This document shows, piece after piece, positions 1,752 to 32,530 of a DNA stretch of 38,508 nt. The notes below the pieces were generated by a model. That model ran no database searches and had not been told where the DNA came from. It saw only the letters and a program-made list of their open reading frames with translations. This DNA is from Caldilineaceae bacterium (GTDB lineage Bacteria > Chloroflexota > Anaerolineae > Caldilineales > Caldilineaceae), in the NCBI GenBank assembly GCA_023384455.1, contig JAHDWH010000031.1, positions 1 through 38,508 of the forward strand, in the 5' to 3' direction. Each line of letters starts with the position of its first letter. The first letter of the stretch is position 1. The position numbers and the translations under genes were made by a program.

Positions 1752-2827
1752 CGGGATTCGCCTTCTTTGCCATTGGGCATACCGACGGTTGGCGCGGAGA
1801 GGGTCAAATCGGTCACAGACTGTGCGGTCAACGCCTGCTCGACAATTGAATCCAGCAAAGTGTGATCTGTGATCAGCCCGATGCGTTCCACAATTGCCTG
1901 GGGCAGTGTGCCAAAGCGGTGGGACAGCAGGCGGAGGAGAAGATCGCGCTTACCCAAAAGTTCTCCTTCCTGTCGCCCTTCTTGTCGCCCTTCTTGTCGC
2001 CCTTCTTGTCGCCCTTCTTGTCGCCCTTCTTGTCGTCCTTCCTGTAATCCTTCGGTGCGGCCTATGCCAAGTCCTTTATCCACCCCCCGTTGCATCGCTT
2101 CCAACTCCAGTCGTTCCCATTTTGTTAATTCAACATCTTGCAGCTCTTCCATCACATTCCCGCCGGCGTCGACCATCACTGCTGTAGGCAAGTAGTAATC
2201 AATCAACTTCAGAAGAAAGAGCTTGTCGCCTTCTGTCAATTCACTTGCCATAACATCGTTCAGAGCGGAAAGCTTAAGAATTGGGCGACGCTCGTCCTGG
2301 ACGTCCATCAGAGCGGCCAATGCGTTCGCGACAGGTTCTTTGTAGGTCATATACTCTTCTCCTTCCAAATCGCGGATTCCTACTTGTCCATATCGAAATG
2401 TCAGTAGTTTCCGCCCAAGCAACATTTCTGTATACTTTACCCATTGCAGCCCGCCGACTCCCGGGCGTAGAACCAGCGCAATGGGAAAAACTGGCTGTTG
2501 GCGCAGCACTCGCAACAACGCATAATACTCGAACATCCGACGGGGAAAATTCTGCTGTGGGTTGGCCTCAATCTCAATGTGGATCAGAATTGTTTCCCGC
2601 TCGCCTTTCCGCGTCTCAACCTCTGCCACAATATCGGTGATACGCAGGATTTGCTCCGGCAGGTTGATGATCAATTCTTTATCCAGAAAGCGCACTTCGT
2701 CGAGTTTCAGACGGCGCGCCTCGCGGGGAAAGAATAGACGCATAAACTGGGGCAAGAACCGATGAAAAAATTCCTTGAAGATGCGGTCATGACCGCTAAT
2801 CGAAGTACTGCCTGTTTGTTCCAACAT
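1748..2827 (-). CDS. Rpn/PD-(D/E)XK nuclease-transposase family-like protein with (GRQE)n repeat and DUF4351-like C-terminus
   Basis: ORF 1748..2884; start chosen at MLEQTGSTSISGHDRIFKEFFHRFLPQFM (2827). DIVAEVETRKGERETILIHIEIEA nuclease-like core; EGRQEGRQ repeats; LLRLLSHRFGTLPQAIVERI tail. Confidence 0.75.
   Translation of the reverse strand: MLEQTGSTSISGHDRIFKEFFHRFLPQFMRLFFPREARRLKLDEVRFLDKELIINLPEQILRITDIVAEVETRKGERETILIHIEIEANPQQNFPRRMFEYYALLRVLRQQPVFPIALVLRPGVGGLQWVKYTEMLLGRKLLTFRYGQVGIRDLEGEEYMTYKEPVANALAALMDVQDERRPILKLSALNDVMASELTEGDKLFLLKLIDYYLPTAVMVDAGGNVMEELQDVELTKWERLELEAMQRGVDKGLGIGRTEGLQEGRQEGRQEGRQEGRQEGRQEGRQEGELLGKRDLLLRLLSHRFGTLPQAIVERIGLITDHTLLDSIVEQALTAQSVTDLTLSAPTVGMPNGKEGESR
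1967..2052. repeat. 12-bp in-frame coding tandem repeat (ttcttgtcgccc)n
   Basis: About seven near-identical 12-bp units encoding GRQE on the minus strand. Confidence 0.9.
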
Positions 2828-5798: not shown

Positions 5799-7331
5799 CT
5801 ACTCCCCACGCAAGAGCCAATCGTCGCCAGTGGGTGGAGTGAAAAGTGTACCTGCGCCCGCCTCGCTCCACAGGCCCGTGCGTGGATTGTACCAACGGGC
5901 ACGCTTGAGCGTGCGGGTCAAATGCAACGGAGTACCGTCAGGTGTGTAGACGACCACTACACCAGCTTCGCTCTGGGCCGCGGCGATGAAGCGGTTGGGC
6001 TGTGCATCGCCGGGCTGCTCCGCCAACAGGTGCTGGGCCGGGCGCAGGGCAGGCCAATCTATTTCAGCAAAGAAAGAGGCCAAATGGACAACGCCCGTTG
6101 CACCTTCGCTCTGTAAAGCCTCTTGCCAGGTGGGGGCAACCCCGCTGTTGGGGTGATCTGCGGGTACGCCCGCTTCCTCCATCCAGGGCCAGATGCCGTG
6201 ATGACCGTAGGTGACGCCTGCGGTGGGCGAGAGCAGCAGACTCCAGTAGAGTGCCCGCCGCACTTGCTGGGCGCTGAAGGGCTGGCGGGAGTGGTAGGCC
6301 AGATGGTCCTCGTAGTTGGGTTCCTGATTGATCACAGGTTTGACCGGGCTGATGTTCCAGTTGGCCGCGGGCGGGCCGGACTGAAGCCAGCGCAGGTGCT
6401 CGTCCCCGTCGCCGTGGCCGCTCTGGTAGCTGTGGAAGGTCAGCCACTTTTCGTTGCGCAGATCCTCGCCCGGCCAATTGATGCCCCGGGGGTGCATCGT
6501 CACCGGCTGCTCGCCGCTCTCGCCAAAGACGGCCCGCCCGGTCTCAATCCACTTCTGCGCCTGTTCGCCCCGATATTCCCCATCGCCGCCCAGAATCCAG
6601 ATGGGGCGATAGGCCGCGTAACGGGCCACTTCGTATTGGGCCAGGTGTGCGCAATCGGCTGCGGAGAGATAGTGGCCGGGGTCGTGGGGTGTGCAGGCCC
6701 AGACCAGCACCGGCGAGGGCAGCAGCCCGTGGCGCGCGATGGCGGCCAGTTTGTCGTCGATGCGCTGGTAAAAGGCTGGGTTGATGCGAATGTTTTCTGT
6801 GCCGGTAAAAGCCAGTTCCCCGGCTGCGTCCTGGGGGAAGGCGCGCCATTGGGTAATGACTGTCTGGATGGCGGTAAAGCCCTGGCGTCTGCGCTCGGCC
6901 AGGTAGACCTCCCAATCGGCAGCTTTGGCTCTGAGCACCCCATTCCAGGCGGTGTCGGCCAGCCAGAAGAAGGGCGTGCCGTCGGTGTGGACCAGATGCG
7001 TGCCGCTTTGCCCTGCCCGAATGCTGCCGTGACACAGAAGAGGGAGATCGCCGGTGTAGGGCGGCGCGTCAAAGCTACCGACCTGCCCGTGCAGCCCGTC
7101 GTTCGACCCGTCCGTGGAATGGGTGACGAAATGCCACGCCCCTGGGGTTTGGGGCGAAAAACGCACCCGCCAGCTCCGCCCGCCATCCCAAAAGGCAGGA
7201 ACAACGGTTTTCTCATTCTCTGGCCCGGCGAATGTGACGGTGAGGGTCACATCCCGGATGGAATCGGTGTAGGCTGCGGTGCTGGTAAACTCGGCTTCAA
7301 AGACGTACAGGATGGGGTCAAAGGTTTGCAT
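5799..7331 (-). CDS. DUF5060/DUF4038-containing glycoside hydrolase-like protein
   Basis: 510 aa; N-terminal FAGPENEKTVVPAFWDGGRSWRVRFSPQTPGAWHF and TDGTPFFWLADTAWNG (DUF4038), C-terminal collagen-binding-like domain ending WYNPRTGLWSEAGAG. Confidence 0.85.
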   Translation of the reverse strand: MQTFDPILYVFEAEFTSTAAYTDSIRDVTLTVTFAGPENEKTVVPAFWDGGRSWRVRFSPQTPGAWHFVTHSTDGSNDGLHGQVGSFDAPPYTGDLPLLCHGSIRAGQSGTHLVHTDGTPFFWLADTAWNGVLRAKAADWEVYLAERRRQGFTAIQTVITQWRAFPQDAAGELAFTGTENIRINPAFYQRIDDKLAAIARHGLLPSPVLVWACTPHDPGHYLSAADCAHLAQYEVARYAAYRPIWILGGDGEYRGEQAQKWIETGRAVFGESGEQPVTMHPRGINWPGEDLRNEKWLTFHSYQSGHGDGDEHLRWLQSGPPAANWNISPVKPVINQEPNYEDHLAYHSRQPFSAQQVRRALYWSLLLSPTAGVTYGHHGIWPWMEEAGVPADHPNSGVAPTWQEALQSEGATGVVHLASFFAEIDWPALRPAQHLLAEQPGDAQPNRFIAAAQSEAGVVVVYTPDGTPLHLTRTLKRARWYNPRTGLWSEAGAGTLFTPPTGDDWLLRGE

Positions 7332-7373
7332 AGGGGTTCGTCCTGTTGAAAGGAATCGGTTGTACGAGTTGGA

Positions 7374-8090
7374 TCACTTCCAGTCTCGTTTCATCAGCCG
7401 CATTTTTGTCTGCCAGGCCACCCGCACAAAATTGACGATGTGATGGATGGGCCGGATGTGGCTGGCCTCCCCTGCATAGATCGTGCGAATGGGCGTCCAG
7501 GCCAGATTGTAACCGGCTTCGACGCAACTTACAATCTCCTCCATCTCAAATTCATAGCCGCTCTCCTTCCCCGCCAACAGCCGCTCCATCAGCCGCCGAC
7601 TGGTCAGCCGATAGCCCGATTGGTTGTCCAGAATCCGCGTGTCCATTGCCCAGGAGAAGATGCGAAAGCCTAAATTGTTGCCCAACCAGCGCCAGAAGGG
7701 CATTTTGTCGAAGGAGCGGTGGCCGATAATCAGGTCAGGCTGCGTCCTTTCAAAAAGCGCGGCAAAGGCGGGAATCTCCGCCGGGTCGTGCTGACCATCC
7801 CCGTCCAGAGCAATCACCCCGTCGTATCCATTCTCCAATGCCCAGACAAAGCCCCGGCGCAGAGCCGCGCCTTTGCCCTGATTGGGGTTCTGCACCAGCA
7901 CAACCGCGCCCGCCGCCTCGGCCAGGGACGCAGTTTCGTCCTGCGAACCGTCGTCTACCACCAGCACAGGCAGATGGGACAGACTTTCCGTCACCACCCG
8001 CTGGATGGCGGCGGCTTCGTTATAGGCAGGAATCAGAACGAGCAGATGCAATTTCAATAGGGTCTCCACAAAAAGTATACGAATTTGCAC
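7374..8090 (-). CDS. Glycosyltransferase family 2 (DPM1/polyprenyl-phosphate type)
   Basis: LHLLVLIPAYNEAAAIQRVV, VLVVDDGSQDET, GKGAALRRGFVWALENGYDGVIALDGDGQHDP. Exact start uncertain. Confidence 0.9.
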   Translation of the reverse strand: MQIRILFVETLLKLHLLVLIPAYNEAAAIQRVVTESLSHLPVLVVDDGSQDETASLAEAAGAVVLVQNPNQGKGAALRRGFVWALENGYDGVIALDGDGQHDPAEIPAFAALFERTQPDLIIGHRSFDKMPFWRWLGNNLGFRIFSWAMDTRILDNQSGYRLTSRRLMERLLAGKESGYEFEMEEIVSCVEAGYNLAWTPIRTIYAGEASHIRPIHHIVNFVRVAWQTKMRLMKRDWK

Positions 8091-12788: not shown

Positions 12789-12805
12789 ATCTGTGGACGA
12801 GCTCC

Positions 12806-12879
12806 CAACCTCCCCCGGCTTGGGGAAGAAGTCGCTCCGGTTCCCTCCCTAGAATGAGGAGGGGTAGGGCGGGGTGGCT
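12806..12879. repeat. G/C-rich dispersed IR element, copy B
   Basis: ctcccaacctcccccggcttggggaagaagtcgctccggttccctccctagaatgaggaggggtagggcggggtgg aligns with the reverse complement of 32280-32363. Confidence 0.75.
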
Positions 12880-12990
12880 GATGAAGTCTTCCTGGCCCTG
12901 CCCTATCTGGTCACAATCCTGGCCCTGGCGTTGGCAGGCCGGGGCGTGGCCTATCCAGGGGGCTATTTGAAGGTGTATCGACGGGAGTAG
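12872..12990 (+). pseudogene. Orphan 3' fragment of ABC-type sugar/nucleoside transporter permease
   Basis: Frame beginning at 12880 reads DEVFLALPYLVTILALALAGRGVAYPGGYLKVYRRE-stop (stop 12988-12990); resembles C-termini of BmpC/YufQ-type permeases. No upstream gene body is present. Confidence 0.65.
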
Positions 12991-13000
12991 TTCTCAAAAT

Positions 13001-13161
13001 CCACCACTGAGGCACTGAGAGCACTGAGGTTCACTGAAAAGAGACAAGAATCTCCTCCTTCTCAGTACCCTCAGTGGGTCAGGCGAAGATATTTTGAGAC
13101 TCTTTCTTCTGCCCTTTCTTCTCCTCTGTGAAACTCAGTGTCCTCAGTGGCTCAGTGGTAA
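13001..13161. repeat. Long imperfect inverted repeat (34-bp arms)
   Basis: Left arm 13001-13034 ccaccactgaggcactgagagcactgaggttcac; right arm 13128-13161 gtgaaactcagtgtcctcagtggctcagtggtaa; reverse complements match at most positions. Confidence 0.85.
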
Positions 13162-13194
13162 AATTTCTTCCAATCCTCAGAAAGCGAGCTTCCT

Positions 13195-31892: not shown

Positions 31893-32530
31893 CGAATCGC
31901 GACCTCGGCCTGATAGGTGTGTGGTTGTGCGCCGTATCATCAGCGATGACCGGCACGAATTGGTGGTCGCTGCCATCATAGACGCCGATGCGAGGCGTCT
32001 GGATTGTCAGGGGCAGGGATGGGCGAGGCTGTTGGCCGCCAGGCCAGCCCAACACCAACCGGTCACCAGACGAACCAGACGGAATGTGTCCAGAAAGACC
32101 GTCAGCAATCCCCCGCCAATCGACATGCGCCAGCCCGATGGGTGGGCCAATCCCAGACGCGCCAGCAGGTCTATGCCGTAATAGGACAAGGGCGGCTGAA
32201 AGGTAAAAAGCGGGCTGCCCAGCCTTACGTACAGAAACTGCACCCAACGTGGATAGACCAAACCGTCGTACCTGTTCAGCCACCCCACCCTGCCCCACTC
32301 CATTCCAGGGAGGGAGGTGGAGCGATTCCTCCCCCACAGTGGGGGAGGTTGGGAGGGGGTGAGCAGTTACAAACTGTCAGAGACTGCGCCAGAGAAGACG
32401 CCGCCGCGACGGCACACATTCCCCGCGGCAGCGTGGGCATACGCGCCCAAATTGAAAGTCAGTGCAGTTGCTACGGCCACGATGACACGAGCGCCAATAG
32501 CAGAATCCAGCGGCTCTTGTTCAGGAGATC
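31889..32530 (-). pseudogene. Degraded composite remnant of a PTPS-related membrane protein gene
   Basis: Frames contain LNKSRWILLLALV, VATALTFNLGAYAHAAAGNV, VFSGAVSD, DGLVYPRWVQFLYVRLGSPLFTFQPPLSYYGIDLLARLGLAHPSGWRMSIGGGLLTVFLDTFRLVRLVT, then LTIQTPRIGVYDGSDHQFVPVIADDTAHNHT/YQAEVAIR-stop; frames change repeatedly and the middle ~600 aa are missing. Confidence 0.85.
32259..32378. mobile_element. MITE/REP-like element, copy A, inserted in the pseudogene
   Basis: TIRs gtacctgttca (32268-32278) and tgagcagttac (32360-32370), 9/11; direct repeats caaaccgtc (32259-32267) and caaactgtc (32370-32378); internal hairpin cctcccccacagtgggggagg. Confidence 0.8.

What the first reader, a model, noticed from the sequence alone, without database searches (positions are those of the whole stretch)
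32259..32378. Insertion element with TIRs and 9-bp target duplication proven against paralogs
Relative to paralog 1 (ISDGFLQPRWVQF), the pseudogene has GACAGTTTG (SDSL) on one side and GACGGTTTG (DGL) on the other side of a ~102-bp insertion, i.e. a duplicated 9-bp target. Ends gtacctgttca / tgagcagttac are inverted (9/11). The core is the G/C-rich hairpin sequence also found at 12806-12879. Internal comparison gives unusually direct evidence of mobility for a hairpin repeat that would otherwise pass as intergenic structure.
Basis: seen in the sequence. Interest (0 to 1): 0.75.

Follow-up and report, generated by a model that had tools for sequence, protein, structure and literature searches.

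The report
IS66-type MITE family, 8-bp target duplications
The 103-base insert is one of probably several hundred copies of a tiny, gene-less jumping element in a Litorilinea-like (Chloroflexota) genome, whose ends and 8-base target duplication match transposons of the IS66 family; it is a real mobile element, but of an ordinary, known kind.

Summary
The insertion is real. Window 32268-32370 is a 103-bp element with terminal inverted repeats GTACCTGTTCA / GTAACTGCTCA, flanked by AAACCGTC / AAACTGTC. The target duplication is 8 bp, not 9; the ninth base is the element's own terminal base. In the same genome 45 distinct full-length copies were examined, averaging 4.4% from consensus. Of 44 with both flanks, 35 carry an 8-bp duplication with at least 7 matches (about 2% in shuffled pairings). 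A 0.42-Mb sample suggests several hundred copies. A sister species, syntenic here, has the empty site with one octamer. The second window copy (12802-12885, minus strand) is degraded. Two other palindromic families (93 bp; 123/132 bp) share the ends GTAACTRYTCA and the 8-bp duplication. Relatives carry single-ORF IS66-family transposons with similar ends and perfect 8-bp duplications, and ISDge4 (IS66, ISBst12 group; PMC12898284) has the identical 11-bp end GTAACTGCTCA. No intact IS66 transposase was found in this genome; one relic adjoins a MITE-type end. Best reading: MITEs once moved in trans by an IS66/ISBst12 transposase, now largely orphaned. New member of a known kind.

The parts
32268..32370 (+). 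MITE copy, 103 bp, no coding capacity
   Evidence: 100% self hit plus 40 further full-length or nearly full-length copies at 90-95% in own genome; nhmmer E 2.8e-31 to the family profile
32268..32278 (+). left terminal inverted repeat GTACCTGTTCA
32360..32370 (-). right terminal inverted repeat GTAACTGCTCA (read on minus strand), identical in 11/11 to one end of ISDge4 (IS66)
32260..32267 (+). target-site duplication, copy 1, AAACCGTC
32371..32378 (+). target-site duplication, copy 2, AAACTGTC
32328..32348 (+). internal perfect palindromic hairpin CCTCCCCCAC-A-GTGGGGGAGG
   Evidence: sequence; fold of family consensus
32294..32314 (+). second internal hairpin arm of the family (imperfect in this copy)
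   Evidence: fold of family consensus
32000..32523 (-). decayed N-terminal remnant of a large membrane-protein paralogue into which the element inserted; the remnant is shared with the sister species
12802..12885 (-). second, degraded copy of the same family (profile positions 5-88 of 103, end repeats lost)
   Evidence: nhmmer E 4.7e-19; alignment

Best explanation
[quoted passage not shown] A transposase of the IS66 family, of the single-ORF ISBst12 type, recognised its GTAACTRYTCA-like ends, moved it in trans into a staggered 8-base target, and host repair duplicated those 8 bases. The family spread to probably several hundred copies. One copy landed in an already truncated gene remnant in this lineage after it split from its sister species. 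No intact transposase was found in this genome today, so the family is probably dormant here unless a copy is unassembled or re-acquired. Shown: copies, ends, duplications, empty site, IS66 elements with similar ends in relatives, lack of an intact IS66 in the draft genome. Inferred: that an IS66 enzyme moves it in trans, and that it arose by internal deletion or by capture of palindromes between IS66 ends.
For: About 41 copies >=90% identical in own genome; 45 distinct copies, mean 4.4% from consensus, TSD >=7/8 in 35/44 versus 2.1% control; end pattern GTAACTGCTCA with <=1 mismatch 719 times versus 78 for the reversed control. Empty orthologous site in a sister MAG, L081:7223 onward, GCCGACGGTAATTTTTTCCCC, with one octamer and matching length. 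Two further core types (93 bp; 123/132 bp) with the same ends and 8-bp TSD. IS66 elements (PF03050, most with zf-IS66 and DUF6444) in relatives with related ends and perfect 8-bp TSDs, among them L139 and L136/L156 in the same genus. ISDge4 of Deinococcus geothermalis, ISBst12 group, observed to transpose: ends GTGACTACTCAGCA and GTAACTGCTCAGCA, 8-bp repeat (PMC12898284). Own-genome relic with an IS66 N-terminus (NSHNSGKPPISDGL...GGGQPGHKGTTL) next to the end GTAACTGCTTACCCC, which differs from the MITE end at one base of 15.
Against: PF03050 finds no intact IS66 transposase in the own genome. Apart from about 11 terminal bases the MITE shares no evident sequence with the IS66 elements seen, so no direct parent is identified. 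No element with the MITE ends and a complete transposase was found in the stretches of this genome examined. The second end of the IS66 relic was not found. Other IS families in this genome were not surveyed.
Confidence: 0.9

Rival explanations
1. A MITE moved by a different DDE transposase family (8-bp duplications are also made by several other families, such as IS256, ISL3, IS6 and IS1595, from general knowledge), the resemblance to IS66 ends being convergent.
For: No intact IS66 in the own genome; other IS families in this genome were not surveyed.
Against: The end GTAACTGCTCA is identical in 11/11 to a transposing IS66 element and close to IS66 ends in the same genus and family; an own-genome IS66 relic adjoins such an end.
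Confidence: 0.07
2. A REP/REPIN-type palindrome (IS200/IS605-like RAYT system) or another structural intergenic repeat, not a TIR/TSD transposon.
For: Strong hairpins, high copy number; GTAG-tagged REPs are known in Chloroflexi (PMC3733652).
Against: 8-bp target duplications in most copies and an empty site; IS200/IS605 enzymes are known to make none. The ends are GTAA/GTAC inverted repeats, not a GTAG-tagged foldback.
Confidence: 0.01
3. The segment is ancestral coding sequence of the gene remnant, lost in the relatives.
For: None beyond its position inside a gene remnant.
Against: The paralogues and both related loci lack it at the same column, and the same sequence sits at dozens of unrelated places.
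Confidence: 0.005

Closest known systems
ISDge4 and the ISBst12 group of the IS66 family
   Same: Terminal sequence GTAACTGCTCA (11/11) and 8-bp target duplication (PMC12898284)
   Different: Carries a transposase gene of about 450 aa; the present element is 103 bp without coding capacity and its interior is different
Bacterial MITEs such as MITEPsy1, MITECca01, MITEPye1, Nezha
   Same: About 70-300 bp, terminal inverted repeats, no coding capacity; target duplications and hairpin folding in several (PMC3189936, PMC9769881, PMC11578231, PMC3733652)
   Different: The papers read attribute the first three to IS5 (tentatively), IS982 and IS1182 parents; none of the papers read describes an IS66-derived MITE or one in Chloroflexota
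REP / REPIN / RAYT palindromes
   Same: Short, abundant hairpins
   Different: No target duplication and no paired terminal inverted repeats of this kind

Membership tests
MITE | Short (under about 500 bp), no transposase gene | tested here: met
   103 bp; copies of nearly fixed length
MITE | Terminal inverted repeats | tested here: met
   11-bp ends, 9/11 inverted in this copy and conserved in the family
MITE | Target-site duplication of fixed length | tested here: met
   8 bp in 35/44 copies versus 2.1% control; not 9
MITE | Multiple dispersed copies and an empty site in a relative | tested here: met
MITE | Actual mobilisation in trans by a transposase | not testable with these tools
   needs a transposition assay
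IS66-derived (ISBst12 group) MITE | Ends shared with an IS66 element | tested here: met
   11/11 with one ISDge4 end; related ends in IS66 of same genus and family
IS66-derived (ISBst12 group) MITE | 8-bp target duplication | tested here: met
IS66-derived (ISBst12 group) MITE | Parental IS66 element in the same genome | tested here: inconclusive
   No intact copy; one N-terminal relic beside a MITE-type end and one very weak C-terminal match; draft assembly
REP/RAYT palindrome | Insertion without target duplication, GTAG-tagged foldback | tested here: not met
   8-bp TSD and GTAA/GTAC ends

The most novel reading that the evidence does not exclude
Several unrelated palindromic cores (GC-rich double hairpin, 18-bp perfect palindrome, ACACGGAAC-repeat palindrome) were independently captured between the same IS66-type ends, and tandem [element + 8 bp] arrays can move as one unit (outer duplication TTCGCCGG around a dimer with a different inner octamer, GTTTCATC), suggesting that an IS66-type enzyme favours hairpin cargo and end-to-end insertion.
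Probability: 0.2. Interest if true: 0.5.

Novelty: new member of a known kind. Interest (0 to 1): 0.3.

Why it matters
It turns an intergenic hairpin of a little-studied phylum into an annotated mobile element with a probable enzyme family, an exact duplication length and an empty site. IS66-driven MITEs appear not to be described in the papers I could search. The ends and family profile should let others mask or annotate these repeats, which also seem to break assemblies of Litorilinea-like MAGs (several contigs start inside a copy).

Tried and rejected
Looking for the parent by TIR pairs with exact 8-bp duplications up to 6 kb in 0.42 Mb, and at unusual TIR variants, gave only MITEs and deletion forms down to 32 bp. 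PF03050 in the own genome: none. Rfam: no match in the window. An octamer TCTGAAAG repeated near the IS66 relic was judged coincidental because no inverted repeat abuts the second copy. The 9-bp duplication was rejected. Literature searches found no paper on Litorilinea repeats and no IS66-derived MITE in the papers opened, which is not proof of absence. Covariation of the hairpins was not analysed.

Full report
Observation. The sequence at 32250-32390 was read directly. The element is window 32268-32370, 103 bp, beginning GTACCTGTTCA and ending TGAGCAGTTAC (GTAACTGCTCA on the other strand). It is flanked by AAACCGTC (32260-32267) and AAACTGTC (32371-32378), which agree in 7 of 8 bases. Across 40 copies with a duplication of at least 7/8, the next base agrees in 11 of 40 on each side, which is chance, so the duplication is 8 bp.

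Copies. A search of the window's own genome (6.77 Mb, 448 contigs) found 41 full-length or nearly full-length copies at 90-100% identity and a few at 85-86%. From the first 60 fetched loci, 45 distinct 103-bp copies give a consensus from which they differ by 4.4% on average (1 to 13 bases). Of 44 with both flanks, 23 have a perfect 8-bp duplication and 12 have 7/8; shuffling the pairing of flanks gives 2.1% at this level. The end GTAACTGCTCA with at most one mismatch occurs 719 times versus 78 for the reversed control pattern. A profile search of 0.42 Mb of this genome finds about 34 copies, including 32268-32370 (E 2.8e-31) and a degraded second window copy at 12802-12885 on the minus strand (E 4.7e-19, profile positions 5-88). 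Extrapolation gives several hundred copies; the sampled contigs were chosen for having hits, so this estimate leans high.

Empty site. There the gene remnant reads GCCGACGGTAATTTTTTCCCCGCCTGG, with one octamer where the window (minus strand) has GACAGTTT-[element]-GACGGTTT, and the remaining length matches. A second relative (L082) and the paralogues also lack the insert. The remnant itself is truncated in both species, so the element did not kill an intact gene; it landed in an existing pseudogene of a family of large membrane proteins, one neighbouring member of which weakly resembles a GT-C glycosyltransferase.

Relatives and sister families. Matches to the element occur in all six other sampled genomes of the genus, the better ones at 75-89%; more distant genera mainly match the core hairpin. 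In the own genome two other core types have the same ends and 8-bp duplications: 93 bp (GTAACTACTCAGGCTT..CACCCTGAGTAGTTAC) and 123/132 bp (GTAACTACTCAGGCAT..TTGGCTGAGTAGTTAC), plus 60- and 32-bp deletion-like forms. Their interiors are unrelated but fold back strongly. The consensus of the 103-bp family folds as a terminal stem with two main internal hairpins (DNA z-score -3.2).

The enzyme. Ends beginning GTAA with 8-bp duplications suggested IS66. PF03050 has no match in the own genome but is present in 22 of 61 sampled genomes. Several of these elements are complete, with perfect 8-bp duplications and a single long transposase frame of roughly 490-515 codons in 1.54-1.58 kb: ends GTAACCGTTCAG (L139, same genus), GTGACTATTCAGG (L136/L156, same genus), GTAACTACTAAGCC (L137, L138, L157). 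L141 (1.63 kb) has GTAACTGTTCAGGTACC and GTAACTGTTTAGGTACC with a perfect duplication. Pfam confirms DDE_Tnp_IS66 in the six frames tested, mostly with zf-IS66 and DUF6444. ISDge4 of Deinococcus geothermalis, placed in the ISBst12 group and observed to transpose, has ends GTGACTACTCAGCA and GTAACTGCTCAGCA and an 8-bp repeat (PMC12898284); its second end is identical in 11/11 to the MITE's right end. In the own genome an IS66 N-terminal relic on C231 (L217, about 2252-2509, minus strand) lies 16 bases from the outer end of GTAACTGCTTACCCC, which differs from the MITE end at one base of 15, as an internally deleted IS66 copy would look; its other end was not found.

Conclusion. The element is a MITE whose ends and duplication length place it with IS66/ISBst12 transposons. 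Trans-mobilisation by such an enzyme is inferred, not shown. The kind is well known; a high-copy IS66-type MITE set in Chloroflexota seems not to be described in the papers I could search, which makes this a new member of a known kind with modest interest.

Noticed in passing
L024 (G000:C346) 1291-1603; L027 (G000:C252) 1384-1603; L009 (G000:C306) 1-126: Tandem head-to-tail arrays of the MITE separated by exactly 8 bp. In C346 the same octamer CAACCGGG lies at every junction although the third copy differs from its neighbours; in C252 the outer octamers (TTCGCCGG) match each other but the inner one (GTTTCATC) differs, as if a dimer had moved as a unit.
   Followed up: partly
L088:1501-1593, L090:1501-1632, L104:129-251: Two further palindromic MITE types (93 bp and 123/132 bp) in the same genome with the same GTAACTACTCA ends and 8-bp duplications but unrelated interiors.
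   Followed up: partly
L127:3427-3458: A 32-bp element consisting of little more than the two inverted ends (GTAACTGCTCACTGGGGTAGCTGAACAGTTAC) flanked by GTTGAAAG / GTTGAAAA; possibly the smallest deletion form.
   Followed up: no
L210 (G005:C12): In a genus relative one IS66 element (1539 bp, duplication CAGTCTTC) appears nested inside another copy whose outer ends span 3086 bp with duplication GCATCTTT.
   Followed up: no
window 32000-32523 and L081 about 7080-7500: The same truncated gene remnant is kept in two species of the genus, so the truncation predates their split while the MITE insertion does not.
   Followed up: yes
window 12985-13165: A different intergenic repeat-like stretch built from variants of 'cactgag' (ccactgaggcactgagagcactgagg ... 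ccctcagtgggt) just downstream of the degraded MITE copy.
   Followed up: no
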